This document shows positions 35,578 to 51,756 of a DNA stretch of 64,000 nt, piece by piece (the first letter of the stretch is position 1; each line of letters opens with the position of its first letter). The notes beneath the pieces are model-generated. The model searched no databases, was not told the origin of the DNA, and saw nothing but the letters and a program-made list of their open reading frames with translations. Origin of the DNA: Acidobacteriaceae bacterium. Lineage in GTDB: Bacteria > Acidobacteriota > Terriglobia > Terriglobales > Acidobacteriaceae. The position numbers and the translations under genes are program-made. The DNA lies in NCBI GenBank assembly GCA_021323655.1, contig JAJPKO010000042.1, positions 1 through 64,000 of the forward strand, in the 5' to 3' direction.

Positions 35578-36303
35578 TTACCAGCTCCCCCGCTCACCAA
35601 ATACATCAATCACGTGGCCAAGTCGTTCAGCGCCATTTTCCCAGTTGACCTGGAGCGCCTTTTCTACGCGGTCCGCATCTCCGGCAGAGATGGCTTCGAT
35701 GATTTCTTCGTGCTCGGCGATGGAGCGGTGAAGGTCATGAATAATCGAGCTTGCGTAGAGACGCCAATAGCGTTCCGTCTGCGGCTCAATGGCCTTATGC
35801 AGGGCCATGAGGCGTGGTCCTGCTCCAGACTCAATAATGCTGCGATGGAAATTGTGGTCCAGGTCGAAGATTCCATGGGCCTTCGCCGGGCGCGCTTTTA
35901 CGATTTCTTCCAGCTGGCGGTTGTAATTCCTGAGTTGTTGCGCGATTTCTGACCGCTTCTCATCTGGCAAGGATGCAGTGCGTCGGCCCGCCAGTCCTTC
36001 AATACGGCCAATAATGGAGTACAGCTCGTTCGCGTCTTCTTTGGTAAGTGGAGCAACGATCATGCGCGACTTGCTGACGTTCTTATGCTCCAGAACGTAT
36101 CCTTCCCGTTGTAGCCAGTGCAGCGCGCCGCGAACGGGAGTGCGGCTCATGCCCAGACGTGCAGCCAGATCGCCTTCTACGATCCAGGTGCCAGGGGAAA
36201 GCCTGCCGTGGACAATCAGCTCTCGAATCTCATGGAAGGCAGTCCGGAGGCTCGTTCCATGCTCCGCTTTCGGTTTAGAAACTGTTTTCTTAATTGCACT
36301 CAT
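35578..36303 (-). CDS. GntR-family regulator with FCD domain
   Basis: DNA-binding regulator of 241 aa. The N-terminal winged helix (IRELIVHGRLSPGTWIVEGDLAARLGMSRTPVRGAL in part, about residues 28-80) is followed by an all-helical FCD ligand domain (DLDHNFHRSIIE, SIIHDLHRSIAEHEEIIEAI) with the Asp and His residues that usually hold a metal near the effector site. ATG 36303 is preferred over a TTG at 36312. It is divergent from lhpA, and a TTGTATCC-type box lies between them. The same box occurs before the GH127 operon and the second TonB receptor, so it probably controls all three, with hydroxyproline or an intermediate as effector (inference). Confidence 0.93.
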   Translation of the reverse strand: MSAIKKTVSKPKAEHGTSLRTAFHEIRELIVHGRLSPGTWIVEGDLAARLGMSRTPVRGALHWLQREGYVLEHKNVSKSRMIVAPLTKEDANELYSIIGRIEGLAGRRTASLPDEKRSEIAQQLRNYNRQLEEIVKARPAKAHGIFDLDHNFHRSIIESGAGPRLMALHKAIEPQTERYWRLYASSIIHDLHRSIAEHEEIIEAISAGDADRVEKALQVNWENGAERLGHVIDVFGERGSW

Positions 36304-36398
36304 AAGAACCAAGCCTCAGAGTACTGGATATGAGGAATTTCATGAAGACTTTCGTTGAAAAGAATGTCCCACTGAGCTTTGATTGGGTTATACTTCGT

Positions 36399-36419
36399 TT
36401 GTATCCAATTTTGTAGACA
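36399..36419. promoter_or_regulatory. GntR/FCD-type operator pair before lhpA
   Basis: TTGTATCCAA (36399-36408) is followed 12 bases on by a second TTGTA (36411-36415), immediately before the lhpA start at 36427. The two-box spacing is identical at 46657-46675, and the core recurs at 51731-51739. TTGTATACAA-like palindromes are typical FCD-GntR sites. Confidence 0.5.
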
Positions 36420-36426
36420 TTTTTAA

Positions 36427-37386
36427 ATGCCAAACCGTGAAGCTCAACCACACCGCATTCAGGTCATTGACTCCCATACCGCTGGCGAGCCCACGCGTCT
36501 TGTGCTCTCAGGAGGTCCTGACCTTGGCTCTGGCCCGTTGTCTGAACGGCTGGAACGCTTTCGCCTGCAGCACGACATTTTCCGCTCGGCGATTGTGAAT
36601 GAGCCACGAGGTTCAGATGTTCTGGTAGGGGCGCTGCTGTGCGAGCCGCATGATCCGACCTGTGACATTGGCATCATCTTCTTCAATAATGTTGGGTATC
36701 TGGGCATGTGCGGTCATGGCTCCATCGGCGTGATCGTGAGCCTGGCATGGCTAGGCAGAATCCGGCCGGGCATTCATCGGATAGAAACGCCAGTGGGAAT
36801 CGTGAACGCTACCCTGCACGAGTCGGGCGAGGTAACGATTGCGAATGTCCCAAGTTACCGCAGTCGTTGCGGGGTTTCCGTAGACGTGCCGGGATTCGGC
36901 AAAGTCACCGGGGACATCGCGTGGGGAGGAAACTGGTTCTATCTGGTAGAACAGCACCGGATACCTCTGACGCTGCAGCATGTGAATGAGCTTACGGACT
37001 TTTCTTGGGCGATTCGGCAGGCGCTGAATGCAAGCGCTATTACGGGCACAGATGGCGCAGAGATTGACCACATTGAAATTTTTGGACCGCCCTCCAATGG
37101 TCATGCGGACAGCCGTAATTTCGTGCTTTGCCCAGGAAAGGCCTACGACCGTTCGCCATGCGGCACAGGAACCAGCGCCAAGATGGCCTGTCTGCATGCC
37201 GATGGAAAACTGAAACCGGGCGACATCTGGCGGCAGGAAGGCATTCTGGACACAGTATTTGAAGGCTCAATCGAAGTACGCGATGGGCAGGTGCTGCCCA
37301 GCATCACCGGATCGGCCTATGTCACAGCAGAGTCTTCGCTCGTGCTTGACGCAAATGATCCCTTCCGCATGGGCATTGTTCCATGA
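36427..37386 (+). CDS. lhpA: 4-hydroxyproline 2-epimerase
   Basis: Cofactor-free epimerase of the proline racemase family (319 aa) that turns trans-4-hydroxy-L-proline into cis-4-hydroxy-D-proline. The two catalytic Cys are in YLGMCGHGSIG and RSPCGTGTSAKMA. The N-terminus IQVIDSHTAGEPTRLV is typical. Proline racemase itself and the trans-3-hydroxyproline dehydratase (which lacks one Cys) are excluded or unlikely, because both Cys are present and the rest of the 4-hydroxyproline pathway follows. It overlaps the next gene by four bases and heads the operon. Confidence 0.93.
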   Translation: MPNREAQPHRIQVIDSHTAGEPTRLVLSGGPDLGSGPLSERLERFRLQHDIFRSAIVNEPRGSDVLVGALLCEPHDPTCDIGIIFFNNVGYLGMCGHGSIGVIVSLAWLGRIRPGIHRIETPVGIVNATLHESGEVTIANVPSYRSRCGVSVDVPGFGKVTGDIAWGGNWFYLVEQHRIPLTLQHVNELTDFSWAIRQALNASAITGTDGAEIDHIEIFGPPSNGHADSRNFVLCPGKAYDRSPCGTGTSAKMACLHADGKLKPGDIWRQEGILDTVFEGSIEVRDGQVLPSITGSAYVTAESSLVLDANDPFRMGIVP

Positions 37387-38507
37387 AGCTTTCCTACGAT
37401 GCCGTAGTGATTGGCGCGGGAATTGTAGGCGCTGCCTGCGCCTGCGAACTGGCCCGCGCCGGAATGCGCATGGCAATTGTAGAAGCGCAGATCATAGGCG
37501 GCGGAGCGACGGCTGCCGGCATGGGACACATCGTTGTGATGGATGATTCGCCTGCGCAGCTTGCTCTGACGCAATATTCGCAGTCTCTCTGGAACGAGCT
37601 CGCTTCACAGCTTCCGCCCAACGTTGAATATGACCGCTGTGGCACGCTTTGGATTGCGGCAGACGATGACGAGATGCAGGAAGTCCATCGCAAGCAGGCG
37701 GTGTATGCAGCCGCGCATGTCAGCACAGAAATTCTTGACGCGAAGGCACTGGCTGAGGCAGAACCGAACCTGCGGCGTCCTTTGGCGGGCGCGCTGTTTG
37801 TGCCCTCGGATGCAGTAATCTATCCGCCGTGCGCGGCCATGTATCTGGTGGAATGCGCGAAGCAGGCCGGAGCTACTCTCTACCTGGAAAGAGCGGTGGC
37901 GAAGGCCGGTAAAGGACGCCTGGTTTTCAGCGATGGCACAGAGATTTTCGCGGCCAGCATCATTCATGCCACTGGCGCCAGCGCATCGCGACTGATGCCA
38001 CATCTTCCAGTGAGAAAGCGCAAGGGCCATCTGGTCATCACCGACCGTTATCCTGGTTTTGTGCGCCACCAGCTTGTGGAACTGGGTTATCTGAAAAGCG
38101 CGCATTCCACCAGCAGCGATTCCGTCGCCTTTAATGTTCAGCCGCGACGCACCGGGCAGTTGCTGATTGGCTCGTCTCGACAATACAACAACGAAGGTAC
38201 TGGAGTAGACCAGAACATTCTGGGCGCAATGCTCGCCCGCGCCTTCGACTACATTCCATCGCTGCAAGGCCTTTCGTCCATTCGGGTATGGACGGGTTTT
38301 CGCGCGGCGACCCCCGACAAGCTGCCGCTCATTGGTCCAACGGAAGACGCCTCTGTGTTTCTGGCTACGGGCCACGAAGGGCTCGGCATCACAACGTCAC
38401 TGGCAACGGCGCGGTTGCTTACGGACCATCTGCTGGACCGCACACCTGCGATTTCCCTCGCGCCTTATCTACCGGAGCGCTTCGCCTGTGAGGCGGCCCA
38501 TGCCTGA
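37383..38507 (+). CDS. lhpB: D-hydroxyproline dehydrogenase, DAO-like FAD subunit
   Basis: FAD-dependent amine oxidoreductase of the D-amino-acid oxidase fold (374 aa). The Rossmann motif VVIGAGIVGAACACELARAG binds FAD; the C-terminal half has RVWTGFRAATPDKLPLIG and the FAD-closing GHEGLGITTSLATARLL. With the next two genes it forms a heteromeric dehydrogenase converting cis-4-hydroxy-D-proline to pyrroline-4-hydroxy-2-carboxylate, passing electrons to the respiratory chain. It overlaps the small [2Fe-2S] gene by eight bases. Confidence 0.9.
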   Translation: MKLSYDAVVIGAGIVGAACACELARAGMRMAIVEAQIIGGGATAAGMGHIVVMDDSPAQLALTQYSQSLWNELASQLPPNVEYDRCGTLWIAADDDEMQEVHRKQAVYAAAHVSTEILDAKALAEAEPNLRRPLAGALFVPSDAVIYPPCAAMYLVECAKQAGATLYLERAVAKAGKGRLVFSDGTEIFAASIIHATGASASRLMPHLPVRKRKGHLVITDRYPGFVRHQLVELGYLKSAHSTSSDSVAFNVQPRRTGQLLIGSSRQYNNEGTGVDQNILGAMLARAFDYIPSLQGLSSIRVWTGFRAATPDKLPLIGPTEDASVFLATGHEGLGITTSLATARLLTDHLLDRTPAISLAPYLPERFACEAAHA

Positions 38508-38742
38508 GCGCATTGCATTGACGATCAATGGCAGGCAATGGGAAACGTCGGAGGGCACAACGATTGCTGCTGCCATCATGAACACTGAAGCAGCCTGTCG
38601 TACCTCTGTGACTGGAGAAGAACGCGGTCCGCTTTGCGGCATGGGCATCTGTTTTGAATGCCGAGCGATTGTGAATGGCGTTCCGCACCAGCGCACGTGC
38701 CAGATGCTCTGCCAGGACGGAATGGACGTGACAACGCAATGA
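38500..38742 (+). CDS. lhpF: [2Fe-2S] subunit of D-hydroxyproline dehydrogenase
   Basis: Small ferredoxin-like subunit of 80 aa, made by ATG 38500 overlapping the end of lhpB. Cluster ligands are in GPLCGMGICFECRAIV and RTCQ. The N-terminus IALTINGRQWETSEGTTIAAA is the beta-grasp of HcnA/SoxA-type subunits. It bridges electron flow between the two FAD subunits. It overlaps lhpE by four bases. Confidence 0.88.
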   Translation: MPERIALTINGRQWETSEGTTIAAAIMNTEAACRTSVTGEERGPLCGMGICFECRAIVNGVPHQRTCQMLCQDGMDVTTQ

Positions 38743-40013
38743 CACAGCACTTTGACATCGTCGTGGTGGGAGGCGGTCCCGCGGGAATGGCTGCGGCTGC
38801 GTGTGCCGCTGAGTACGGAAAGCCTGTTGTCATTGTGGATGACAACCTTACGCTCGGCGGGCAGATCTGGCGCGGCAAGGATATTCCTGCCGCTGCCAGA
38901 AAATGGCAGGCGCGGCTCGATTCGGTTTCGGCACACGTCACGCGTATTCACGGCGCGCGTGTTTTTTCACAGCCAGTACCCGGCGTTCTTCGTGCTGAGC
39001 AAAACGGCAGATATCTGGATATTGCTTATCGCAAATTGATTCTGGCCACAGGAGCGCGCGAGCGGTTTCTTCCTTTTCCTGGCTGGACATTGCCCAACGT
39101 AGTGGGTGCTGGTGGCTTGCAGGCGCTGGTGAAGAGCGGCCTTTCCGTAAAAGGCAAGCATGTTGTGGTCGCCGGAAGCGGTCCGCTTCTGCTGGCAGTC
39201 GCTGCTTATTTGCAAACCCATGGCGCAAAGGTGCTCGCCATCTGCGAACAGGCGCAGTTCTCACGTCTTCTAAAATTTGTACACTCCATAGTTACAGATA
39301 GTGGCAAGCTTCGGCAGGCACTCACGTACAAGATGCAGACGATGTCTGTTCCCTTTTATGCCGGGTGCTATCCGGTATCGGCTGGTGGAGGAAAGAAGTT
39401 CGAATCGGTGACATTGCGCCAGGGGAAACGCGCATGGACGATCGCGTGTGATTATCTGGCGTGCGGCTTTCATCTGGTACCAAACACTGAGTTGGCGGAG
39501 TTTTTTGGCTGCCGTATCTCCAATGGCAAAGTTGCCGTGGATAAGTGGCAGCAGACGAGTATTTTGGATGTTTATTGCGCGGGCGAGCCTACTGGGATTG
39601 GCGGTGCTGAGCTGGCCCTCGTCGAAGGACAGATTGCCGGATATGCGGCTGCCGGGCAACAAGACAAAGCACATTCTTTCTTTGAAGAACGCGCACGCCG
39701 GCGCAAGTTTGCACAGCTGTTAGAAGAGACATTCGCTCTTGACCCCGCGCTCGCACAGCTTCCGCAGGACGAGACGCTTGTCTGCCGCTGTGAAGATGTG
39801 CCTTACAGTGTGCTGAAGCACGAGCCTTCATGGCGCGCCGCCAAACTGCATACGCGCTGCGGCATGGGACCATGCCAGGGGCGCATCTGCGGGACCGCGA
39901 CAGAATTTATTTTCGGATGGACAGCTGGACAAGTACGTCCGCCGATCTTCCCAACACCACTTTCAAGTCTCGGAGCAAAACCCGAACTTATTGAATTACA
40001 GGAGACACGATGA
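38739..40013 (+). CDS. lhpE: D-hydroxyproline dehydrogenase, NAD(P)/FAD-type subunit
   Basis: Pyridine-nucleotide-disulfide-oxidoreductase-like subunit (424 aa) of the same complex, resembling HcnB and octopine/nopaline oxidase OoxA. First Rossmann fold VVVGGGPAGMAAAACAAEYG; second KHVVVAGSGPLLLAVAAYL; and a C-terminal [2Fe-2S] site (LVCRCEDVPYS, TRCGMGPCQGRICG), like the BFD-type domain of this group. It starts at ATG 38739 with a four-base overlap; the earlier in-frame frame lies inside the ferredoxin gene. It ends overlapping lhpC by four bases, so translation is coupled. Confidence 0.92.
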   Translation: MTQHFDIVVVGGGPAGMAAAACAAEYGKPVVIVDDNLTLGGQIWRGKDIPAAARKWQARLDSVSAHVTRIHGARVFSQPVPGVLRAEQNGRYLDIAYRKLILATGARERFLPFPGWTLPNVVGAGGLQALVKSGLSVKGKHVVVAGSGPLLLAVAAYLQTHGAKVLAICEQAQFSRLLKFVHSIVTDSGKLRQALTYKMQTMSVPFYAGCYPVSAGGGKKFESVTLRQGKRAWTIACDYLACGFHLVPNTELAEFFGCRISNGKVAVDKWQQTSILDVYCAGEPTGIGGAELALVEGQIAGYAAAGQQDKAHSFFEERARRRKFAQLLEETFALDPALAQLPQDETLVCRCEDVPYSVLKHEPSWRAAKLHTRCGMGPCQGRICGTATEFIFGWTAGQVRPPIFPTPLSSLGAKPELIELQETR

Positions 40014-40936
40014 ACTGGTTTGGCGTAATGCCTGCAATGACCACTGCATTTGATGAACAACTGAAGGTAGACCACGCCTTTATGCAGCAGCACGCGCAAT
40101 GGCTATTGGAGAACGGCTGCACCGGCCTGGTGATGCTTGGCTCCCTGGGAGAAGCAGCCACTCTTACATTTGATGAGAAAGTGGCAGTCCTAAAAAGCAT
40201 GGTGAAGACTCTTGCTTGCAAGGCGCCTATTGTCGCAACCATTTCTGCGCTCTCAACTGCGGAGGCGGTTTTACTTGCGAAAGCTGCGGCTGATGCAGGC
40301 TGCTCGGGATTGATGGTGCTGCCGCCGTATGTCTATCGCGGAGACTGGCGCGAGATGAAAGCACATATTGCTGCAATCTTCAAAGCAACTCCGCTTTCCT
40401 GCATGCTCTACAACAATCCGGTAGCGTATGGCACAGATTTTCTTCCTGAGCACATTGCAGAGCTTGCTGCGGAGCACGACAACTTCCATTCGGTCAAAGA
40501 ATCAAGCACCGACGTGCGCCGCGTAACGGCGGTTCGTGCGCTGATTGGCGACCGCCTAAAAATTTTTATGGGCGTGGATGACGCAATTGTCGAGGGTATT
40601 GGTGTCGGGGCCTGTGGATGGATTGCTGGCCTCGTGAATGCTTTGCCCGCAGAGTCGGTCGCGTTGTTCAACCTGGCATATGAAGGTAAAACGAAGGAGG
40701 CGTTTGAGCTTTACCGCTGGTTTTTGCCTCTCCTGCGCATGGATACCGTTCCCAAGTTCATCCAATTGATTAAGTTTGCGCAACAGGAATTGGGAGTAGG
40801 CAATGCCCGAGTTCGTCCTCCGCGTCTGGAAATCACGGGCCAGGAATTGGCCGAAACGAAAAAGGTAATTGTGGAAGCGCTGAAGCACCGTCCTGCTATA
40901 AAAGAAGTTGCGTTCGCGGCGGCTGCTGCGCATTAA
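40010..40936 (+). CDS. lhpC: Pyrroline-4-hydroxy-2-carboxylate deaminase (DapA family)
   Basis: Class I aldolase-fold enzyme (308 aa) of the dihydrodipicolinate synthase family. In this context it opens and deaminates pyrroline-4-hydroxy-2-carboxylate to 2-oxoglutarate semialdehyde. Family marks: GSLGEAATLTFDEKVAVL, LPPYVYRGD, the catalytic Tyr in MLYNNPVAYGTD and the Schiff-base Lys in SVKESSTDVRR. Lysine-pathway DapA is unlikely, because of the operon and the divergence of the substrate loop (GSLGEAATLT in place of GTTGE). Confidence 0.9.
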   Translation: MNWFGVMPAMTTAFDEQLKVDHAFMQQHAQWLLENGCTGLVMLGSLGEAATLTFDEKVAVLKSMVKTLACKAPIVATISALSTAEAVLLAKAAADAGCSGLMVLPPYVYRGDWREMKAHIAAIFKATPLSCMLYNNPVAYGTDFLPEHIAELAAEHDNFHSVKESSTDVRRVTAVRALIGDRLKIFMGVDDAIVEGIGVGACGWIAGLVNALPAESVALFNLAYEGKTKEAFELYRWFLPLLRMDTVPKFIQLIKFAQQELGVGNARVRPPRLEITGQELAETKKVIVEALKHRPAIKEVAFAAAAAH

Positions 40937-40948
40937 ACAACCCTGTGT

Positions 40949-40983
40949 TGTCATTTTGAGCAGAGCGAAGGACCTGCTTTTTG
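40949..40983 (+). repeat. REP-like intergenic repeat
   Basis: TTGTCATTTTGAGCAGAGCG followed by AAGGACCTGC and T5 resembles an intergenic repeat common in acidobacterial genomes (TGTCATTCTGAGCGNAGCGAAG type). A diverged partial copy begins at 8360 (TGTCATTCTGAGGGAAGTAA). It occupies the 134-base gap between lhpC and lhpG, which otherwise shows nothing and may be read through. Confidence 0.35.
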
Positions 40984-41070
40984 CTTAGCGCTCCACAAAT
41001 CTCTGCCATCCGTTTACGCTGCTTTGCGTGAATAGATAAGGGACGGCATTATGAGGTCAAGGTCATTCCT

Positions 41071-42642
41071 ATGTTGAACGGAACATCTATCCTCGGAACC
41101 AAACGTAGCGCCACAACAGGCGAGGGTTTTTACGGCATCAACCCGGCTACGGGAGAGCAGCTGCAACCAGCTTTCTTCTCCGCTTCGGCAGAAGATGTAG
41201 ACACCGCTGCAAGACTCGCAGATGCGGCCTTCTCCAGCTACAGCAAGCTATCAAACAGTAGACGCGCCGCTTTTTTGCGCAGCATTGCCGATGCTCTCCT
41301 GAAAGCTTCCCGTGAAATCATCGAGCGGGCACATCTGGAAACCGCATTGCCTGTTCCCCGGCTTGAAGGAGAACTGGCTCGCACGGCCAACCAGCTTCGT
41401 CTTTTTGCTGAAGTCGTGGAGGAAGGATCCTGGGTAAATGCGCGCATTGATACGGCCGACCCAGAACGTAAACCTCTGCCCAAGCCCGATATTCGCTCTG
41501 TACTTCAGCCGCTCGGCCCTGTGGCTGTATTCGGAGCAAGCAATTTTCCGCTGGCTTTTTCCGTCGCAGGCGGAGACAGTGCCTCGGCCCTTGCCGCAGG
41601 ATGCCCTGTGGTTGTGAAAGCGCATCCTGCGCATCCGGGCACAAGCGAGCTTGTGGGCACTGTCATCCGCGAATGTGTGGCCACTGCCGGACTGCACGAA
41701 GGCACTTTTTCGCTGCTCTTCGATTCGGGGATTGAAGTAGGCTCGCGGCTCGTACAGCATCCGCTCATCAAGGCCGTGGGATTCACCGGATCTCTGAAGG
41801 CCGGCCGCGCTCTCATGGACCTTTGCGCCAGCCGCCCTGAGCCCATTCCCTGTTACGCGGAGATGAGCAGCACCAATCCAGTCTTTGTCCTGCCCGGAGC
41901 TTTGAAAGAGCACGACAAGATCGCGGCTGATCTGACTGCTTCCTACACATTGGGAGCAGGTCAATTCTGTACGAAGCCGGGACTTGTATTTCTGCCGCCT
42001 CAGGACGAAACTTCAGGGCTGGTGGAAGAAATGCGCAGACGTGCAGCCTCTTTGCCTGCATTTACGATGCTGACTGCCGGGATCGCGGCCCAATACAAAC
42101 GCGGCATCGCGCAGCAGACACAAGCGAATGGAGCGCGTGTCGTTGCCGCTCCTGATACAATTTTTGGAACAGCCGCTGCCCTGCTCGAAGCTGACGCTGA
42201 AGATATCCTGAAAAATCCTGCGCTGACAGAAGAGATATTTGGCCCGACGACACTGCTCGTTCGTTATCAAAGCCGCGAGCAGATGCTCAGAATCGCCGAG
42301 TCACTCCAGGGGCATTTGACCGCAACGTTGCTGGGCACTGAAGAAGACCTCGCGGGCCATCAGGATTTAATCGCGATTCTCGAGCGCAAAGTGGGACGCA
42401 TAATTTTCAACGGATATCCTACGGGCGTTGAGGTCTGTCACTCCATGGTCCACGGTGGCCCATATCCGGCTACGTCGGAGAGCAAAAGCACCTCTGTCGG
42501 AACACTGGCGGTTTACCGCTTTGCGCGCCCTGTCTGTTACCAGAACATACCGCAGCCTGTGCTGCCTGAAGCGCTGAGGGACAGCAATCAGCTTGGTCTA
42601 TTGCGCATGGTAAACGGACAAATAAGTCGTGATGCTATTTAG
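41071..42642 (+). CDS. lhpG: 2-oxoglutarate semialdehyde dehydrogenase (ALDH family)
   Basis: NADP-preferring aldehyde dehydrogenase (523 aa), catalysing the last step, 2,5-dioxopentanoate (2-oxoglutarate semialdehyde) to 2-oxoglutarate. Motifs: GASNFPLAFSVAGGD, VGFTGSLKAGRAL, the catalytic Glu in CYAEMSSTNPVF and the nucleophile Cys in LGAGQFCTKPGLV. It is one of the KGSADH-like long-form aldehyde dehydrogenases. It completes the hydroxyproline pathway into the TCA cycle. A weak AAGG lies upstream of ATG 41071. Confidence 0.92.
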   Translation: MLNGTSILGTKRSATTGEGFYGINPATGEQLQPAFFSASAEDVDTAARLADAAFSSYSKLSNSRRAAFLRSIADALLKASREIIERAHLETALPVPRLEGELARTANQLRLFAEVVEEGSWVNARIDTADPERKPLPKPDIRSVLQPLGPVAVFGASNFPLAFSVAGGDSASALAAGCPVVVKAHPAHPGTSELVGTVIRECVATAGLHEGTFSLLFDSGIEVGSRLVQHPLIKAVGFTGSLKAGRALMDLCASRPEPIPCYAEMSSTNPVFVLPGALKEHDKIAADLTASYTLGAGQFCTKPGLVFLPPQDETSGLVEEMRRRAASLPAFTMLTAGIAAQYKRGIAQQTQANGARVVAAPDTIFGTAAALLEADAEDILKNPALTEEIFGPTTLLVRYQSREQMLRIAESLQGHLTATLLGTEEDLAGHQDLIAILERKVGRIIFNGYPTGVEVCHSMVHGGPYPATSESKSTSVGTLAVYRFARPVCYQNIPQPVLPEALRDSNQLGLLRMVNGQISRDAI

Positions 42643-44703: not shown

Positions 44704-44704
44704 G

Positions 44705-46624
44705 CTATGCCGATCTTGGTGTCACTTTCCAGTAGATGCTGTACCGCTGATCCAACAATTGATAGAGCGGAATCAGTTCCGTCTGTTGACTCTGCCCGAC
44801 GGTCTGAAACTTCAAGCCGTCTGTTTTCTCCAGCCATCCCGTGGGGTTACTTGCCTCCGTCGTCGCCTCAGGCATCGGATAGTCTTTTGTCTTCTTATCA
44901 TCCGGGCCATACTCGCCGCGGATCATCTTCTCGGTGAGGCCCTCGCGTCCCATCTCGGCAGCGAGTACCAACGGCCCATACATCGGTGCTTGAATGGTCT
45001 TGTCATCCGGCAGCGGAGCAACATGCAGTTTCATGGGCAGCGATACTTCAACTTTGTCTCCGTCATGCCAGGTGCGATGAAGTTCTGCATAAGTACCCGG
45101 TTCTGCTTTGATCTTCTCTGTCTTGCCGTTCACCTTGATGGTTGCGCCGTCGGCCCAGTACGGAATGCGGATGTTGACGCCGAACGCAGTTGGGTTTTCT
45201 GTCTTGAAGGTCAGCGTGGTGGCTTCTTCTTCAGGAAAGTTTGTGTCCTGCACCAGACGAATGCCTTTCTCTTCCCAGTTCACCTCGGAACCGATAAACA
45301 GATTCACATAAATGTTCTTCTCATCGTGGAAGTAGATTGAGTCGTTTGTTTTGGAGTACTCTTCTACGCCGGTCCCCGTACAGCACCAGAAAGAATCATA
45401 GGGGGTCCCAAAAGTCTTCCAGAAACCAGGCTTCAGCGGGACATAGTACATCAGCATCCCGTTCGGGTCCTGCGTGCCAAGGCGCACGTTAAACAGCAGC
45501 CGCTCATAGTAATCCATGATGCGCGGATCAGGGTCCCATCCATACACGTGGCGCGAGAGCTTCATCATGTTGTAGCTGCAGCAGCACTCCTGTGCTGCCG
45601 GGCCAAGTTCGCCCGAGAGTTTGCCAGCAGCCTGCCAGAATTCCCCGTTGCTCGTGCCGCCAGTCGCATAGGTGTGCTCGGCCACGCACTCATGCCAGAA
45701 GTAGTCAGCAATTTTGCGATAACGGTCTTCCGCCGTCAGTTCGTAGCCGCGCGCAGCACCAATCACCTGGGGAATGTGCGTGTTCGCGTGAATGCCAGCG
45801 AGATCATCCTGCCCCTGCGCGAGCGGGTCAAAAAACTTTTTCTTGGTAAAGCGCCGTGCAAGCTGCACGTACTCCTGCTTGCCGGTCAGCGCATAGAGAT
45901 TGAACAACACTTCCTGCATTCCGCCGAACTCCACGTTCAGAATGTGCTGGAAGTCTTCATCGCTGATCGGCATGACATACGCGTTCGCCCATCCAGCCAT
46001 TTTTTCTGCCGTGTCCAGAGCCTGCTTGTTTCCACAGTGGACATACATATCCACGTGTCCGGCCATGATCTTATGGTATGTGTAAAAAGGCGCCCAAACC
46101 TTCTCGTGCTTGCGCAGGCGGTCATAGAACTCCTCAGGATATGCGCCGAGATACCCGTTCGCCTTCTGGCACTTTGCCAGCTCGGCCACAAGCGCATCAC
46201 CTTTTGCCTTGACCGAATCATCACCGGTGCTCGCGTACATCAACGCGTATGCGGACAGGATGTGTCCTCCCGCAAAATGTCCGCGCAGCTCGCATTTGGG
46301 ATCTTCCCATCCACCAAGCGGCTCAGCGTTCGATGGCAGTCCCGCAGTCACACGAAACATATGTACCAGGCGGTCGTTCGGAAGGGACATGATGTAGCGA
46401 AGATTGATCTGCTGCGCGCGCTGCATCGGCCCGCTGCGCAAACGAACAGCAGTCATCGGGAAGGGTTGGACCTTCCAGAAAACCTTTTCATGACCGCCCG
46501 CGTGATTGTTTCTGGGTACATCTGTAATAGCGTCCTGCGCGAACACTCCGCGAGTTAGCAACGCAGCTGTGGCTGCCGCTGAGGAGGCCGAGGCAAGAAA
46601 GTTTCTGCGAGAGATCGAGTTCAT
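44705..46624 (-). CDS. Tat-exported GH127 beta-L-arabinofuranosidase
   Basis: GH127 (DUF1680) glycosidase, the family whose founder HypBA1 removes L-arabinose from Araf-beta1,2-Araf-hydroxyproline. Tat signal SISRRNFLASASSAAATAAL. Active-site elements visible: probable acid/base Glu in GGTSNGEFW (about residue 328 from this start); zinc ligands Glu346 and Cys348 in AAQECCCSYN; and the vicinal Cys pair 414-415 in DSFWCCTGTGVEE, one of which is the nucleophile. Length of 639 aa is normal. ATG 46624 gives the Tat motif near the start; the earlier frame start at 46651 is less likely. TTGTATACAA lies just upstream. Its presence beside a hydroxyproline operon points to plant extensin arabinosides. 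Confidence 0.93.
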   Translation of the reverse strand: MNSISRRNFLASASSAAATAALLTRGVFAQDAITDVPRNNHAGGHEKVFWKVQPFPMTAVRLRSGPMQRAQQINLRYIMSLPNDRLVHMFRVTAGLPSNAEPLGGWEDPKCELRGHFAGGHILSAYALMYASTGDDSVKAKGDALVAELAKCQKANGYLGAYPEEFYDRLRKHEKVWAPFYTYHKIMAGHVDMYVHCGNKQALDTAEKMAGWANAYVMPISDEDFQHILNVEFGGMQEVLFNLYALTGKQEYVQLARRFTKKKFFDPLAQGQDDLAGIHANTHIPQVIGAARGYELTAEDRYRKIADYFWHECVAEHTYATGGTSNGEFWQAAGKLSGELGPAAQECCCSYNMMKLSRHVYGWDPDPRIMDYYERLLFNVRLGTQDPNGMLMYYVPLKPGFWKTFGTPYDSFWCCTGTGVEEYSKTNDSIYFHDEKNIYVNLFIGSEVNWEEKGIRLVQDTNFPEEEATTLTFKTENPTAFGVNIRIPYWADGATIKVNGKTEKIKAEPGTYAELHRTWHDGDKVEVSLPMKLHVAPLPDDKTIQAPMYGPLVLAAEMGREGLTEKMIRGEYGPDDKKTKDYPMPEATTEASNPTGWLEKTDGLKFQTVGQSQQTELIPLYQLLDQRYSIYWKVTPRSA

Positions 46625-46656
46625 ACATTTACACCTGTCATGGTTATACATTCACA

Positions 46657-46675
46657 TTGTATACAAAATTGTACA
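46657..46675. promoter_or_regulatory. GntR/FCD-type operator pair before GH127 operon
   Basis: The perfect palindrome TTGTATACAA (46657-46666) is followed 12 bases after its start by a second TTGTA (46669-46673), the same arrangement as at 36399-36415. It is about 35 bases before the GH127 start and also upstream of the small secreted gene at 46772. Confidence 0.55.
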
Positions 46676-46716
46676 TTAATAATACCCACCCAAAGCTTAG
46701 AAAATCAGGAAAACTC

Positions 46717-46745
46717 TTTAACCCGATATTAGATGGGTGTATAAT
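46717..46745 (+). promoter_or_regulatory. Promoter of small secreted-protein gene
   Basis: A perfect -10 TATAAT (46740-46745) lies 17 bases after TTTAAC (46717-46722, weak -35). It is 27 bases before the GTG at 46772, which has a strong AAGGAGGAG at 46756-46764. Confidence 0.55.
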
Positions 46746-46771
46746 GCTTCCCCCCAAGGAGGAGATCAGCC

Positions 46772-47038
46772 GTGATTGAATCAGCAAATCTCGTTTTTCG
46801 TAGAAGTTTATTCATTTTGCTTGTGCTATTTACTTGTAATCTGCTCCATGCAGATATTACGAGCTGTAGCTCAACCGTGCACACGTGCACGCCAGTATCG
46901 GCCCCCGGTTCTTGCCCCCTCTATATTGTATGCAATAAAAATATTGACCCGCCGACCTCCGGAAGAGCTGGTGAAGTTATTTACGAATGCTCCGATGGAT
47001 CTTTTTATTTTTGCTGGGAATGTTGTGGCATTATCTGA
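46772..47038 (+). CDS. Small secreted Cys-rich protein
   Basis: 88-aa protein with a signal peptide (RSLFILLVLFTCNLLHA) and a mature part of about 60 residues with eight Cys in paired spacing (TSCSSTVHTC, GSCPLYIVCN, YECSDGSFYFCWECCGII). No family recognised. The Cys density suggests disulfide-bonded folding or metal binding. The start is GTG with a near-perfect Shine-Dalgarno and a TATAAT promoter upstream. The stretch is visibly AT-richer than neighbouring genes, suggesting recent gain. It precedes another small exported-protein gene by 19 bases on the same strand. Confidence 0.65.
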   Translation: MIESANLVFRRSLFILLVLFTCNLLHADITSCSSTVHTCTPVSAPGSCPLYIVCNKNIDPPTSGRAGEVIYECSDGSFYFCWECCGII

Positions 47039-47057
47039 GAACGCAAGGGAGAGTTCT

Positions 47058-47645
47058 ATGAAACGCTCTAAACTATTGCACTCTATAGTCATCATGACCT
47101 TTGCTGTTCATCTTTGGAGCCAAACCAGTTGGGTTCCTTATACGGCTAAATTAAGGGAAACCATCAACAATATTTATCCAGGAGGAAAACAAGAAACCAT
47201 CGTCAATGAAGGCATTAAAGCGCGCAATTCTGAAGGTAGCATATTAGAAGAGATATATTCACCCAATTCAACTAAGCCAGATCATGGAAAGCTATACATC
47301 GCACCTGAAGGTATAGCATATACCTTAAACTTTCCACAGAATATTGCCGTTGGTGTCCATCAAAAGCTTGGCAGGATGTTAGAACCAAAGGGACAGCCCA
47401 TCGGGCGGGCAGTCATCGGAGGTGTTACTGCCACGGGCTACCCCATGCTTAGTGCACAAACAAAACAGCCTGAAGGAGAAATCTGGATTGCAGACGGATC
47501 AGATATTATTGTCAAAATAACCTCAACTGCTCCCGGTGGTAGCAAGTATACCCAGGAATTGCTCGATGTAAAAATTGGTGAAGAGCCTCCTAACTCACTC
47601 TTTTCTCTCCCTAAATCGATGGCTGTTTCGAAACCGGAAAAGTAG
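47058..47645 (+). CDS. Exported hypothetical protein
   Basis: 195-aa protein with a signal peptide (HSIVIMTFAVHLWS) and no recognised family. Beta-rich segments (GKLYIAPEGIAYTLNFP, GEIWIADGSDIIVKITST) and the end VKIGEEPPNSLFSLPKSM recall small periplasmic LolA/DUF4412-like proteins of acidobacteria. ATG 47058 with GGGAGAG upstream is preferred; the longer in-frame extension back to 46776 runs through the Cys-rich gene in another frame and has no ribosome site. AT-richer than neighbours, like its partner. Confidence 0.7.
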   Translation: MKRSKLLHSIVIMTFAVHLWSQTSWVPYTAKLRETINNIYPGGKQETIVNEGIKARNSEGSILEEIYSPNSTKPDHGKLYIAPEGIAYTLNFPQNIAVGVHQKLGRMLEPKGQPIGRAVIGGVTATGYPMLSAQTKQPEGEIWIADGSDIIVKITSTAPGGSKYTQELLDVKIGEEPPNSLFSLPKSMAVSKPEK

Positions 47646-47669
47646 CAGTCTACTGTTGATACTTGTTCA

Positions 47670-47704
47670 AAAATGCAGCCGCAGCAGGAGGCTACCGCGG
47701 CTGA
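47670..47704 (-). terminator. Terminator after second TonB receptor
   Basis: On the minus strand CAGCCGC and GCGGCTG (47704-47698 with 47683-47677) form a seven-base stem, followed by CATTTTTG. It lies 10 bases after the receptor stop. It also sits just beyond the convergent gene at 47645. Confidence 0.5.
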
Positions 47705-47713
47705 AGCAAGGAA

Positions 47714-50700
47714 TTAAAAGTCCACGTTGACGCGAAGCTCGATGGCACGTGGGCTGCTGGTCTCATAGCCCGTACCAAAACTGGCATTCTGCACATAGGA
47801 AAGCCCATTGGTGTATCCACCACCATTGCCGAAGAAGGGGTGGTTCCAGGCATTCAGGAACTCGCCCTGGAATTTGAAATTAATGTTCTCCGTGATCGGG
47901 AAACGCTTGGTCAGGGAGATGTCCTGACCAAAGGTATGCGGGCCATAGAGATAAATAACCTGTCCAAATGTACCCGGAGTTGTATTGGGCGTAATGTAGT
48001 TGGTATTAGCGCCACCGCTGTAGCCTGCCAGATATTTTTTATCGAGCAGGTCTACGAAGGTCGCAGCAGTACCGCCGTTTTCAGCCGGCGTAATGCGGTG
48101 CACACCAACAGCGCTCTGCAATTGCTTTGCGGTAATCCCAGTGAGTTGAATACCTCCATCTGCGTAATCGTTGAAGGTGTAGTTTCCGCCGTTCAGGCGC
48201 AGCGGAGCGCCACTCTGGAAGTTGACAATCGTTCCAAGCGTCCAGTTACCCAATATCCTGTCGACAACATTTCCTGAGTTCAGGAAGGCCTTGCCTGCGC
48301 CAAAGGGCAGATCATACGTGCCGCTGAGATGCAGAACATGCCGCAGGTCAAAGAGCGTTGGCCCGTAGGCCTTGGCCAGATTCCGCATGCTGTACACAGG
48401 TGATCCACCCGTCCACTCATTGTCTGTGGCAGTGCCCAGCGTGTGGCTCCAGACATAGTTGACGTCAAATTGCAGCCCGTTCCACGCGTTCTGGCGGAAG
48501 TCCACCTGCAGGGCGTTGTAGTTCGAGTATCCAGCAGCGACCATATAGCTGGTCTGCTGTCCCGCGCCGAAGGGGTTGGCCTGGAAGAAGTTGATCGGAT
48601 ATCCCGCGCCCGGCCCGCTATATCCAGCGTTGTTCGCGCATGGAGCAAAGCCGGCACCGACAAGATTGCAGAAATACGGCACTGTGCCATTGATGCCACT
48701 CAGCACGTTTGCCATCGCACCCGCCTGTCCGGTTTGCAGATACGTGATGAACTGGCTGTTTGTGTAATCGGAACCGGCCGGGGATTCGCCCGCAAATGCT
48801 GCATCAAAAATCGGAAGCGGCTTCTGCCCGGGAATGCCGTTGTTCGCAAAGGACGTGCCACCGTTTAGCGCAAGGTTGGTCTGAGCAGCTTTGAACTGGT
48901 TCAGGAAGCCATTCTCAAAAATATTCACCTCATTCGGATTCAGCGCGATCCACTGGTGAATGGTGCGGTTTCCGTTGTAGCGAATTTCAATGGCGCGCGT
49001 GTTTCCAAGCTGTCGCTGTATGCCTAAGTTCCAGGCCTCACTGTAAGGCTGCTGAATATGCGGATCAATGCCTGCAAACGAAAGCGAGTTCTGAAACGTA
49101 AAGTCGGAAAGCGGTTCCGTCTTCAGGTAACTCGCAGGCGACAAGCCATACGCCGGTAAGGAACTGCCCAGTGACAGGCTGCCCGGAGCAAAGGTGCCCG
49201 GCCGTCCAGTATTGTTCGCATTCAAGTAGAAGCTCTGGTAGAAGAATGCGCCATAGGCTGACGCGTTGTCCCAATAGTATTGATACGGCTCAGTAAAGCG
49301 GCGCAGATTGAAGCCGCCGCGTACCACTGTTTTCCCATCGCCAAACAGTTTACCCAGCACGCCTTCGCTTCCCTTTGGGTTCCAGGCAAAACCAAAAGCG
49401 GGCTGCGGGCTCACATTCCATGGGCTGTAGGCATGCGGCCTCGCGCTGATCACCGGGTCCATCGCTCCCTGAAGCGATCCGGGGTTAAAGATATTGCCAA
49501 CGCCCGATGGTCCATACAAACTGGCTGCATCTACGTTGTGATAGTTTCCAGTCAGATCATAGTTATCGCCGGTAAAGTCCCACCGCAGACCATAATTTAG
49601 GGTCAGTGACGGCGTGACTCTCCAGGAATCTTCAAAGAACAGGCCCCATGCCTTTGACAGCTCGTCCAGATTGTAAGCGCCAATTCCGTTCTTGTAGTTT
49701 CCGGACTTAGGATCATAGGCAAAGCTGCCATTTATCGCCCCGGAACCCGGTCCGCCCGACCCTGTACTGCTGCCGATTCTGCCCGTGAGCACAGCATAGA
49801 GTTGTCCTGCTTCCCCCATGTTCTGGCTGCTGGCATTCGGCATCGTAGCAGAATTGAATGCCTGCAACGCCGGATCACCAGTGGCCAACCCTAGGTTGTA
49901 GTTCGGAAAACCTGCGGGTGGGTTCCAGTAATGGTCCTGCTCGCGATACCAGGAGAAGCCGAAACTCATGGTATGCGCGCCACGCTGCCACGTGACCGAG
50001 TCGGAAAGATTAAAGACGGGATAGTAGGAAGTGACCGGAAGCTGATAAACCTGTCCGGACATATTGCCATTGCCGCCATAGTTGTTCATGTTCCAGAAGA
50101 CAGTAGGTTCCGTTGCATAGAGCGGCGCCGAGTTATACGCCCACTTACTGGTGTTATAGAGAAAGCCCAGCTTGAACTGGTTAATAAGAGCAGGAGAAAG
50201 GGTCCAGTCCAGGCCATACGATGCAACATAGCTGCGGAACCAGTTTCCAGCCGCCTGGTCTCGAAAGTCTGATCCCGGAAAGTTTGGCGCCGCACCGGAA
50301 GGGTACTCATATTGCGACATATTTCCGGCCAGATACATGCGCACCTTCTGGGAAAGGCTGTAGTCTATTCGGGCCGTTGGGTAATAGAAAGTAGTTGGAT
50401 TCGGAACATTCCAGCGCACGGTGTTGAAATTTGGATCGGGTGTGCTGGAAATCGTGCCCTGCTGCAGCGAGTTGTTGATCTTCTGAAGCTGCGCAGCGAT
50501 GACGGAGTTCTGCGATGTGGGCAGAGCAGGGTTTGTCTGTTGCGCAAGCTGAAATACATTGACCGTGTGTGTCTGCCCGTCTGTCCCCGTATAGGTAAAG
50601 TTGCCGTTTTGCGCCGCTTGGGTAAAGACATTGTTGGAAGCCGTCGTTGTGCCCGGCTGCTTGGCAACGGCGAAGCTGCCAAAGAAAAACAGTTTGTCAT

Positions 50701-51577
50701 GCAGAATCGGACCGCCCAAATTGCCACCAAAGCTGTTCTTGATGAACTTGTTCTTGCGCACACCAGCAGCGTTGTTCGTCCAACTATTTGCATTCAACCC
50801 GGCATTCTGGAAATCGCCAAAGACGCTGCCATGATACCGGTTGGTTCCGCGCTTGGTGACGTAGTTGATCTGTGTACTGGACTGGCCAAAGCCCGCACCC
50901 AGCCCCAACTGGTCCGTGACAATAGACATCTCCTCAATGTCTTCAAGACGCGGCGTCACGACGGGAGCGTCGTTGCCACTGAACTTCATGCGCGACGGAC
51001 TTCCCTGAATGCCGTCAATGTTCGTGCCCTGATCTATGGAAGGCAGCCCGTTGTAGGTGCCGTTATAACCCGGCGTCAGATGGGCAAGGGAGGTGAGGTT
51101 GCGATCGGCTACCGGCAGGTCCTGAATCTGCTTCAGATCCACAACCGTGCCGATCTGGTTTGATGTCGTCTCCATCACCGGCGTGGCGCTCTCAGAGACA
51201 GTCACGGTCTGTGTGGCCTGCCCAAGGGAGAGTGTTGCTGTAACCGGAGTCACCTGTCCGGCATGGACCACAACCGAGTCAAAAACACGCGTGGCAAAGC
51301 CATCTTTACTGACGGTCAGTTTATAGGTGCCGATGTTCAGGTTGACGAAAGCGTAAGTACCACGATCCTGACTTTCGGCATTGCGCACGTCATTCGTGGC
51401 AAGATCGGTGAGTTCCAGATGAGCAGCAGAGATGACGCTTCCGCTGGGGTCGAGCACAGTTACGGCGATAGTGCCCTGTGAGCCGCTCTGTCCGTGTGCC
51501 GACAGCACGAAGATCCAGCTAAGGACCATCAGGCTCGCTACAAACCTGAAGAAATGGCCTCCAATACGACAACGCAT
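47714..51577 (-). CDS. TonB-dependent receptor, Oar-like with CarboxypepD_reg-like domain
   Basis: Second outer-membrane transporter (1287 aa) of the acidobacterial type: signal peptide ending SAHGQ; carboxypeptidase-regulatory-like domain (GTIAVTVLDPSGSVISAAHLE to VTATLSLGQ); plug (DLPVADRNLTSLAHLTPGY, STQINYVTKRGTNRYHGSVFG); barrel; C-terminal RAIELRVNVDF. GGAGG is seven bases before the ATG. A promoter with an embedded TGTATACA box is at 51727-51756. By shared operator it is the likely importer of arabinosylated hydroxyproline peptides or arabino-oligosaccharides for the GH127/hydroxyproline locus. Substrate assignment is inference. Confidence 0.92.
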   Translation of the reverse strand: MRCRIGGHFFRFVASLMVLSWIFVLSAHGQSGSQGTIAVTVLDPSGSVISAAHLELTDLATNDVRNAESQDRGTYAFVNLNIGTYKLTVSKDGFATRVFDSVVVHAGQVTPVTATLSLGQATQTVTVSESATPVMETTSNQIGTVVDLKQIQDLPVADRNLTSLAHLTPGYNGTYNGLPSIDQGTNIDGIQGSPSRMKFSGNDAPVVTPRLEDIEEMSIVTDQLGLGAGFGQSSTQINYVTKRGTNRYHGSVFGDFQNAGLNANSWTNNAAGVRKNKFIKNSFGGNLGGPILHDKLFFFGSFAVAKQPGTTTASNNVFTQAAQNGNFTYTGTDGQTHTVNVFQLAQQTNPALPTSQNSVIAAQLQKINNSLQQGTISSTPDPNFNTVRWNVPNPTTFYYPTARIDYSLSQKVRMYLAGNMSQYEYPSGAAPNFPGSDFRDQAAGNWFRSYVASYGLDWTLSPALINQFKLGFLYNTSKWAYNSAPLYATEPTVFWNMNNYGGNGNMSGQVYQLPVTSYYPVFNLSDSVTWQRGAHTMSFGFSWYREQDHYWNPPAGFPNYNLGLATGDPALQAFNSATMPNASSQNMGEAGQLYAVLTGRIGSSTGSGGPGSGAINGSFAYDPKSGNYKNGIGAYNLDELSKAWGLFFEDSWRVTPSLTLNYGLRWDFTGDNYDLTGNYHNVDAASLYGPSGVGNIFNPGSLQGAMDPVISARPHAYSPWNVSPQPAFGFAWNPKGSEGVLGKLFGDGKTVVRGGFNLRRFTEPYQYYWDNASAYGAFFYQSFYLNANNTGRPGTFAPGSLSLGSSLPAYGLSPASYLKTEPLSDFTFQNSLSFAGIDPHIQQPYSEAWNLGIQRQLGNTRAIEIRYNGNRTIHQWIALNPNEVNIFENGFLNQFKAAQTNLALNGGTSFANNGIPGQKPLPIFDAAFAGESPAGSDYTNSQFITYLQTGQAGAMANVLSGINGTVPYFCNLVGAGFAPCANNAGYSGPGAGYPINFFQANPFGAGQQTSYMVAAGYSNYNALQVDFRQNAWNGLQFDVNYVWSHTLGTATDNEWTGGSPVYSMRNLAKAYGPTLFDLRHVLHLSGTYDLPFGAGKAFLNSGNVVDRILGNWTLGTIVNFQSGAPLRLNGGNYTFNDYADGGIQLTGITAKQLQSAVGVHRITPAENGGTAATFVDLLDKKYLAGYSGGANTNYITPNTTPGTFGQVIYLYGPHTFGQDISLTKRFPITENINFKFQGEFLNAWNHPFFGNGGGYTNGLSYVQNASFGTGYETSSPRAIELRVNVDF

Positions 51578-51726
51578 AAAATCCTCCGAAAAAGAAACGC
51601 CTGAATGCGCCGACAGGGCTGGAAATCTGTGAATTCCGGGAAACGATTTCCCGCCAGCCCTGCGCCTTCCCTCGCCTTTGGAACTCTGCTTCGCTGCGCT
51701 GTACAGGCAAGTTTTGAAGGTACTGA

Positions 51727-51756
51727 ATTATGTATACAATTTTGAGTTTTTTGCAA
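51727..51756 (-). promoter_or_regulatory. Promoter with embedded TGTATACA operator
   Basis: On the minus strand TTGCAA (51756-51751), 18 bases, CATAAT (51732-51727). The spacer ends in AATTGTATA, so the palindrome TGTATACA (51738-51731) overlaps the -10. It fits repression by the GntR/FCD protein. The rest of 51578-51938 shows nothing else. Confidence 0.5.

What the first reader, a model, noticed from the sequence alone, without database searches (positions are those of the whole stretch)
35578..51756. Candidate extensin / hydroxyproline-arabinoside utilisation system
A full trans-4-hydroxyproline to 2-oxoglutarate operon (lhpA-B-F-E-C-G) lies next to a Tat-exported GH127 beta-L-arabinofuranosidase, the enzyme family that strips arabinose from hydroxyproline in plant extensins. 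With them come an exported TIM-barrel partner, a TonB receptor and a GntR/FCD regulator. Identical operator-like boxes link the three transcripts. Seen: the genes and boxes. Known: HypBA1/GH127 chemistry and the Lhp pathway. Inferred: that the pieces form one system taking in glycosylated hydroxyproline and using both sugar and amino acid.
Basis: partly seen in the sequence, partly recalled or inferred. Interest (0 to 1): 0.88.

Follow-up and report, generated by a model that had tools for sequence, protein, structure and literature searches.

The report
Extensin-type glycoprotein utilisation regulon
A soil bacterium keeps the genes that burn hydroxyproline beside, and apparently under the same DNA switch as, enzymes expected to strip the sugars from hydroxyproline-rich plant wall proteins, and the same pairing recurs in distantly related bacteria.

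Summary
The lhpA-B-F-E-C-G operon, divergent GntR/FCD gene, Tat-type beta-L-arabinofuranosidase, TIM-barrel partner and TonB-type porin are all present. One correction: the arabinofuranosidase is GH146-like (342 bits to BT0349, 40 to HypBA1), not GH127; GH146 includes enzymes known to act on Araf-Hyp. Linkage is conserved: in 120 family genomes 22 of 30 with GH146 also carry lhpA (34 of 120 overall), 11 of these 22 within 20 kb; in 117 genomes of Dyella's family (another phylum) 14 of 15 with both have them within 15 kb. The boxes are variants of one palindrome, GTATACAAnnTTGTATAC: in 41 Acidobacteriota loci 35 of 42 matches stand before genes of the set; shuffled palindromes average 1.3. The best genome-wide site stands before a DPPIV-type peptidase on another contig. 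The TIM-barrel protein folds like GH129/GH36 enzymes (weak model); elsewhere GH27 stands in. Best reading: a HypR-like regulon for extensin-type glycoprotein, stripping sugars, cutting X-Pro/Hyp peptides, burning hydroxyproline. Substrate, effector and arabinose use are untested; no L-arabinose isomerase was found; half of the co-carrying family genomes are unlinked.

The parts
35578..36312 (-). GntR/FCD regulator, HypR-like by function (proposed)
   Evidence: PF00392 + PF07729; orthologues at 57-91% identity in L069, L070, L071, L076, L079 and L126
36401..36418 (.). operator between FCD and lhpA, GTATCCAATTTTGTAGAC
   Evidence: box centre 10-35 bp before the tblastn-derived lhpA start also in L069, L070, L071, L074, L075, L079, L082, L088
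36427..37386 (+). lhpA, 4-hydroxyproline epimerase
   Evidence: PF05544 334 bits; NCBIfam HdxProlEpim 428.7 bits, just under its cut-off of 450; Cys95/Cys245 pair
37383..38507 (+). lhpB, D-Hyp dehydrogenase FAD subunit (by context)
   Evidence: PF01266
38488..38742 (+). lhpF, 2Fe-2S subunit (by context)
   Evidence: PF13510
38736..40013 (+). lhpE, flavoprotein subunit (by context)
   Evidence: PF07992
40010..40936 (+). lhpC, DHDPS-family pyrroline-4-hydroxy-2-carboxylate deaminase (by context)
   Evidence: PF00701
41071..42642 (+). lhpG, alpha-ketoglutaric semialdehyde dehydrogenase (by context)
   Evidence: PF00171
42943..44703 (-). exported protein (twin-arginine motif), N-terminal beta-sandwich + (beta/alpha)8 barrel, GH129/GH36-like fold; candidate alpha-galactosidase
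   Evidence: no Pfam family; AF2 pLDDT 57; Foldseek 5wzn E 2.8e-13, 5opq, GH36, GH101; VIA 5opq Z 13.9, rmsd 5.3, 461 aligned
44705..46651 (-). exported (twin-arginine motif) GH146-like beta-L-arabinofuranosidase; true start perhaps the internal Met at 46624
   Evidence: PF07944 381 bits; BT0349 342 bits against HypBA1 40 bits; Zn-site residues E355, C357, C423, C424 invariant in the 13-row alignment
46659..46676 (.). operator before GH146, GTATACAAAATTGTACAT
47714..51577 (-). TonB-dependent-transporter-like outer membrane protein
   Evidence: PF13620 + PF25183
51720..51749 (.). two overlapping weaker operator copies before the porin, 12 bp apart
   Evidence: 12/16 matches each; contains the only exact TGTATACAATTTTG in the genome

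Best explanation
The locus is most likely a HypR-type regulon for feeding on hydroxyproline-rich plant glycoprotein, extensin-type above all. Proposed working: the FCD protein, probably a repressor, sits on palindromes GTATACAAnnTTGTATAC and is lifted by hydroxyproline or a catabolite of it. Exported GH146 removes beta-linked Araf from Hyp. The exported TIM-barrel protein removes a second O-linked sugar, best guess the alpha-galactose on serine. A DPPIV-type peptidase behind the best operator in the genome cuts X-Pro/X-Hyp peptides. The TonB-type porin admits glycosylated or trimmed fragments. LhpA-B-F-E-C-G turns trans-4-hydroxy-L-proline into 2-oxoglutarate. Shown: genes, families, conserved linkage, operator statistics. 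Inferred: regulator-operator pairing, effector, substrates, order of steps, use of the sugar.
For: Complete lhp set and Cys-Cys epimerase. GH146-like enzyme with invariant Zn-Cys site; GH146 members XeHypBA1 and Bll4HypBA1 cleave Araf-Hyp (passages). Linkage: 22 of 30 GH146 genomes have lhpA against 12 of 90 without GH146 (Fisher 1.8e-9); 11 of 22 within 20 kb on one contig, G101 and G116 through a 38%-identical homologue. In Dyella's family 14 of 15 genomes with both have them 7.4-14.2 kb apart. Dyella/Rhodanobacter loci add DUF885 (4 of 4), amino-acid permease (3 of 4: L122, L128, L129), M24 Xaa-Pro peptidase (L122, L127), GH27 (L122) and a TonB receptor (L128, the one scanned). On a 55-row GH146 tree lhp linkage needs 10 changes. 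Operator: 35 of 42 matches at target starts against 1.3 mean for 40 shuffled palindromes; the unlinked loci of G047 and of G033 keep boxes at both places (L081/L082, L087/L088). S9/DPPIV peptidases occur in the fetched lhp/GH146 regions of other genomes, and the best own-genome site lies about 31 bp before one on another contig. TIM fold GH129/GH36-like; of 101 loci 6 have the TIM protein, 5 have GH27, none both.
Against: No biochemistry or expression data. GH146 also contains arabinan (BT0349) and AGP (Bll3) enzymes, and the nearest solved homologue is BT0349. 8 of 30 GH146 genomes in the family lack lhpA, and 11 of 22 with both are far apart or on separate contigs. Phylum-wide only 17 of 46 GH146 genomes have lhpA, 7 of the 17 within 21 kb. 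Only 8 of 80 named GH146 loci show lhp genes in the flank held, 5 of the 31 with at least 21 kb. A box was found at target starts in 21 of 41 Acidobacteriota loci; none at 14/18 in the unlinked loci of G039 and G096 (L083-L086) nor in L122, L127, L128, L129, L121, L124. No L-arabinose isomerase in the genome. No GH121 homologue recognised. The TIM protein is rare: 4 of 120 family genomes, in G103 on another contig than GH146. Structure models are weak (pLDDT 57 and 51). A GH28-like gene shares the S9 operator region, which points to pectin as well. Palindrome at <=3 mismatches: 8 sites against 7 for the control.
Confidence: 0.74

Rival explanations
1. Pectin/arabinan module: GH146 removes beta-1,2-Araf from RG-I arabinan as BT0349 does, and lies beside a hydroxyproline operon that has an unrelated role.
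For: Nearest solved homologue is BT0349, an RG-I locus enzyme (passages). A broken GH105-like gene (name recalled, not scanned) lies next door at 34301-35285. A GH28-like gene shares the S9 operator region.
Against: Linkage with lhp recurs in two phyla, 14 of 15 genomes in Dyella's family, and the operator is found at both places in G047 and G033, where they are unlinked.
Confidence: 0.14
2. Regulon for other Hyp glycoproteins: AGP, gum arabic, arabinosylated signalling peptides or algal walls, with extensin one of several substrates.
For: GH39, GH43, GH51 and GH27 genes occur in some linked loci; Bll3HypBA1 acts on AGP (passages).
Against: The window holds no galactanase-type family among the ten proteins scanned. 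The GH43 genes elsewhere were not assigned to subfamilies and galactanases were not searched for, so this is weak.
Confidence: 0.3
3. Chance neighbourhood: genes of unrelated function, boxes a common promoter element.
For: The porin type is common in Acidobacteriota (recalled); 11 of 22 co-carrying family genomes are unlinked.
Against: Linkage expected in about 1% of genomes by chance, observed in 11 of 22 and 14 of 15 (phylogeny not modelled); 35 of 42 boxes at target starts.
Confidence: 0.02
4. Collagen/animal hydroxyproline regulon as in Shewanella and Streptomyces HypR regulons, the glycosidases being incidental.
For: HypR regulons there include collagenases or putative collagen-degrading enzymes, and in Alteromonadales prolyl peptidases and a TonB receptor (passages of PMC5343134 and PMC6608401).
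Against: No collagenase family among 40 proteins scanned from related loci, which is only part of their genes; a beta-L-arabinofuranosidase has no known use on collagen (recalled).
Confidence: 0.06

Closest known systems
Bifidobacterium longum HypBA1/HypBA2/HypAA and Xanthomonas euvesicatoria XeHyp enzymes (GH127/GH146, GH121, GH43) for Hyp-linked arabino-oligosaccharides (passages of PMC6085000, PMC10850190)
   Same: A beta-L-arabinofuranosidase of the GH146/GH127 group in a dedicated gene set; XeHypBA1 prefers Araf-Hyp
   Different: Here it is joined with full hydroxyproline catabolism, a FCD-type operator, DPPIV peptidase, porin and a GH129-like partner; no GH121 homologue recognised. PMC6085000 says X. 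euvesicatoria cannot use L-arabinose
HypR regulon of Proteobacteria and Streptomyces (passages of PMC5343134, PMC6608401)
   Same: GntR/FadR-type regulator of hydroxyproline catabolism that also controls upstream depolymerising steps; in Alteromonadales also prolyl peptidases and a TonB receptor
   Different: Plant glycosidases in place of collagenases; operator GTATACAAnnTTGTATAC against CTNTGC(A/C)ATGTCAC in S. coelicolor; Acidobacteriota
BT0349 GH146 beta-L-arabinofuranosidase, RG-I locus of Bacteroides thetaiotaomicron
   Same: Closest solved sequence (342 bits), same Zn-Cys site
   Different: BT0349 chain is 802 aa with a C-terminal jelly roll over the active site; this protein is 648 aa and ends before it
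GH129 alpha-N-acetylgalactosaminidase NagBb / ZgGH129
   Same: Fold of the TIM partner over most of its length
   Different: 11-14% identity in the Foldseek rows, no meaningful profile match to any solved sequence

Membership tests
GH127 (HypBA1) | closest sequence relationship to HypBA1 rather than to GH146 enzymes | tested here: not met
   40 bits to 3WKW against 342 to BT0349
GH146 | closest sequence relationship to BT0349 / Bll3HypBA1 | tested here: met
   342 and 198-199 bits, over residues 60-643 and 75-568
GH146 | Zn site E-x-C and C-C | tested here: met
   E355, C357, C423, C424 invariant
GH146 | beta-L-arabinofuranosidase activity | not testable with these tools
   needs enzyme assay
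Lhp trans-4-hydroxy-L-proline pathway | epimerase, three-part dehydrogenase, deaminase and alpha-KGSA dehydrogenase families in one cluster | tested here: met
Lhp trans-4-hydroxy-L-proline pathway | NCBIfam hydroxyproline epimerase cut-off | tested here: inconclusive
   428.7 bits, cut-off 450; proline racemase model only 237
HypR regulon | GntR/FCD regulator beside hyp genes | tested here: met
HypR regulon | shared operator at hyp genes and own promoter | tested here: met
HypR regulon | binding of the operator and release by Hyp or catabolite | not testable with these tools
   needs EMSA
GH129 / GH36-like clan (TIM partner) | fold | tested here: inconclusive
   Foldseek probability 1.00, VIA Z 13.9, but on a pLDDT 57 model, and other TIM barrels (GH29, GH20, GH13) tie in Z over the barrel alone
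GH129 / GH36-like clan (TIM partner) | sequence-profile match | tested here: inconclusive
   no meaningful match among solved sequences and no Pfam family; distant kinship not excluded
Bacteroidota-type PUL | SusC/SusD pair | tested here: not met
   no SusD among the ten window proteins scanned; the porin is PF25183 type
XeHyp/HypBA system | GH121 beta-L-arabinobiosidase in the cluster | tested here: inconclusive
   none recognised, but the libraries used may have no GH121 model; a family of about 786 aa with no Pfam or solved match sits in 5 of 101 GH146/lhp loci

The most novel reading that the evidence does not exclude
This is the first described bacterial utilisation regulon for whole extensin-type glycoprotein, both glycans and peptide. 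The GH146-TIM pair strips Araf from Hyp and alpha-galactose from Ser, which makes the TIM-barrel protein the founder of a new glycoside hydrolase family that is interchangeable with GH27. The roughly 786-aa (alpha/alpha)-barrel family is a second new glycosidase family working on the Hyp-arabinan. Arabinose and hydroxyproline may meet at alpha-ketoglutaric semialdehyde.
Probability: 0.38. Interest if true: 0.86.

Novelty: new variant of a known kind. Interest (0 to 1): 0.72.

Why it matters
Extensins and related glycoproteins hold most of a plant wall's hydroxyproline, and how soil bacteria recycle them is poorly known (recalled). A conserved, operator-defined gene set in Acidobacteriota and a matching gene set in Rhodanobacteraceae make the question directly testable. 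It names three protein families without known function there (GH129-like TIM-barrel, about 786-aa family, DUF5695) and gives a marker, GH146 beside lhp, for finding such consumers in soil genomes.

Tried and rejected
GH127/HypBA1 assignment: rejected. Placing this GH146 next to the Hyp-active XeHypBA1 or Bll4HypBA1: not possible, I did not obtain their sequences. The X. bonasiae GH146 stretch in L135 (633 aa given) was not treated as XeHypBA1, which is 791 aa. Search for GH121 among unknown neighbours L128:7235, L135:3439, L118:9507, L135:12013 by phmmer against solved chains: nothing. Profile search of the TIM and about 786-aa alignments against solved sequences: chance hits only, or none. 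DUF5695 against solved sequences: nothing. Rfam and tRNA scans of the window: nothing.

Own-genome operator sites: of the five further <=3-mismatch palindrome sites, the two on C32 and one on C50 fall inside frames of my ORF list (the C50 frame, 198 aa, may be spurious) and were dropped; C27 and C59 were not looked at. Most of the other 2-mismatch hits were not followed.

Mended on re-checking: my first GH146 tree carried a duplicate contig (L072/L108), one mislabelled row (L034) and rows with short flanks; one search repeats it with 55 rows and gives the same 10 changes. The Dyella-family count is 14 of 15, not 14 of 14, if G557 (41% identical GH146) is kept; the Fisher value leaves G557 out. 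My first gene picker lost some GH146 frames to antisense ORFs; tblastn mapping replaced it. In one search the motif was first drawn from the window's own boxes; 29 of the 35 near-target hits remain without the window, same-genus L069 and duplicate L108. The 41 loci were chosen by me: the window, 20 fetched and 20 of the Acidobacteriota loci; others were not given.
Full report
WHAT IS THERE. LhpA has the Cys95/Cys245 pair and scores 428.7 bits for the hydroxyproline epimerase model, just below its cut-off of 450, against 237 for proline racemase. The other lhp names rest on family and gene order.

THE ARABINOFURANOSIDASE IS GH146-LIKE. Against solved sequences it gives 342 bits to BT0349 (5OPJ), 198-199 to Bll3HypBA1 (8K7X/Y) and 40 to HypBA1 (3WKW). 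The Zn-site residues E355, C357, C423, C424 are invariant in a 13-row alignment. The correction does not weaken the idea: passages of PMC10850190 say that GH146 includes XeHypBA1, which mainly cleaves Araf-beta1-Hyp, and Bll4HypBA1, which acts on Araf-Hyp of hydroxyproline-rich glycoprotein; it also includes arabinan and AGP enzymes. Three other PF07944 genes in the genome lie on other contigs.

THE LINKAGE IS CONSERVED. In 120 genomes of the family, GH146 (E<=1e-80) is in 30 and lhpA (E<=1e-40) in 34; 22 have both (Fisher 1.8e-9). In 11 of these 22 the two lie 5.3-20.0 kb apart on one contig; for G101 and G116 the linked GH146 is a 38%-identical homologue. The other 11 are far apart (G039, G047) or on separate contigs. 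In 396 phylum genomes 17 of 46 GH146 genomes have lhpA, against 28 of 350 without GH146; by the places listed 7 of the 17 are within 21 kb, two of them (G358, G480) outside the family. In Dyella monticola's family GH146 (E<=1e-100) is in 16 of 117 genomes and lhpA (E<=1e-70) in 49; 15 have both, and 14 of these 15 have them 7.4-14.2 kb apart; the fifteenth, G557, has only a 41%-identical GH146 on another contig, and G597 has GH146 without lhpA. Of 80 named loci, the best of 590 candidates, 8 show lhp genes in the flank held, 5 of 31 where at least 21 kb is held. These tests ignore shared ancestry; on a 55-row GH146 tree the lhp-linked label needs 10 changes, so linkage was gained or lost repeatedly.

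WHAT ELSE SITS THERE. Among 101 loci (matches at E<=1e-40, 30% identity or more): DUF5695 in 11, amino-acid permease in 10, S9/DPPIV peptidase in 8, DUF885 in 8, the TIM protein in 6, GH27 in 5, the about 786-aa family in 5, M24 Xaa-Pro peptidase in 3 (L155 weakly). L072 and L108 are one contig counted twice. TIM and GH27 never share a locus, though the window's genome has a more distant GH27-type gene elsewhere (C32). Gemmatimonadaceae L121 and L124 carry GH146 beside the TIM protein and a more distant PF05544-type protein, L124 also parts of a sugar ABC transporter.

THE OPERATOR. The palindrome GTATACAAnnTTGTATAC at 12 or more of 16 positions occurs 42 times in 41 Acidobacteriota loci (764 kb); 35 lie from -30 to 300 bp before the start of a target gene (lhpA, GH146, porin, FCD, DUF5695, S9, lhpG), against a mean of 1.3 and maximum of 5 for 40 shuffled palindromes. 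29 of the 35 remain without the window, same-genus L069 and duplicate L108. Such boxes are in 21 of the 41 loci. Before lhpA 10 of 12 lie with their centre 10-35 bp from the start. In G047 and G033, where lhp and GH146 are unlinked, both places have a box (L081/L082, L087/L088); in G039 and G096 (L083-L086) none was found, nor in the Rhodanobacteraceae and Gemmatimonadaceae loci tested, which presumably use another regulator. In the window's own genome the strongest match, GTATACATATTTGTATAC (1 mismatch), lies on contig C40, about 31 bp before a DPPIV/S9 peptidase that is 54% identical to the S9 of G066's lhp locus. The S9 family had been picked out from other genomes beforehand. A GH28-like gene with a twin-arginine start faces the other way. 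At <=3 mismatches the palindrome is no commoner than its reversed control (8 against 7 sites), so weak sites mean little.

THE TIM PARTNER. AlphaFold2 with five sequences gives pLDDT 57, pTM 0.54: an N-terminal beta-sandwich and a (beta/alpha)8 barrel. Foldseek ranks GH129 alpha-N-acetylgalactosaminidase NagBb first (E 2.8e-13, TM about 0.48), then ZgGH129, GH36 alpha-galactosidases and GH101. VIA-align gives 5OPQ Z 13.9, rmsd 5.3, 461 aligned; GH29, GH20 and GH13 barrels tie in Z but align over about 230-275 residues, while GH129 and GH36 rows cover about 430-464. No meaningful profile match exists among solved chains. It is found in 4 of 120 family genomes, in G103 on another contig than GH146. 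Extensin serine carries alpha-galactose and GH129/GH101 act on Ser/Thr-linked alpha-GalNAc (both recalled), so an alpha-galactosidase for Ser-Gal is my best guess, supported by GH27 standing in its place elsewhere. The about 786-aa family gives a weak model (pLDDT 51) of (alpha/alpha)-barrel type: Foldseek's first hit is the exo-beta-D-arabinanase ExoMA2 (E 1.2e-5, TM only 0.25); VIA rows are alpha-L-fucosidases and alpha-L-rhamnosidases at Z about 18.

HOW IT PROBABLY WORKS. GH146 and partner strip sugars outside the cytoplasm (twin-arginine motifs), DPPIV cuts X-Pro/X-Hyp peptides, the porin brings fragments in, Lhp makes 2-oxoglutarate, and the FCD protein senses hydroxyproline or a catabolite. 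HypR of S. coelicolor and S. meliloti is a GntR-type repressor of hydroxyproline-inducible genes (passages), and Alteromonadales HypR regulons add collagenases, prolyl peptidases and a TonB receptor; this locus looks like the plant-wall counterpart. The sugar's fate is open: no L-arabinose isomerase. The oxidative L-arabinose route would meet the Lhp route at alpha-ketoglutaric semialdehyde (recalled), but it was not tested.

NOVELTY. The pieces are known kinds. I found no paper tying GH146 or GH127 to hydroxyproline catabolism in the listings of searches of an open-access library; PMC4454575 (passages) infers extensin deglycosylation in Latescibacteria from a GH127 gene. The union, its operator and its spread over two phyla, with a third hinted, appear new.

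Noticed in passing
34301-35420 (-): GH105-like gene (family name recalled, not scanned) broken into two frames, 34301-34915 and 34836-35285: a frameshifted pseudogene or a sequencing error beside the FCD gene.
   Followed up: partly
L202:7285-11272 (G000:C40): Best operator match in the genome, between a DPPIV/S9 peptidase and a GH28-like gene on another contig.
   Followed up: yes
L118:9507-11855, L106:3287-5725, L128:7235-9595, L127:7228-9597: Protein family of about 786 aa with no Pfam match (L118, L128 scanned) or solved match, in GH146 loci of Acidobacteriota and Rhodanobacteraceae; weak model of (alpha/alpha)-barrel type.
   Followed up: partly
L121:4899-6248, L124:7443-8546: Gemmatimonadaceae place a divergent PF05544-type protein (35-36% to LhpA) beside GH146 and the TIM protein; possibly another hydroxyproline enzyme.
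   Followed up: partly
47061-47645 (+): Small exported-looking frame between GH146 and the porin, not scanned for families; its query found no listed match among the fetched loci.
   Followed up: no
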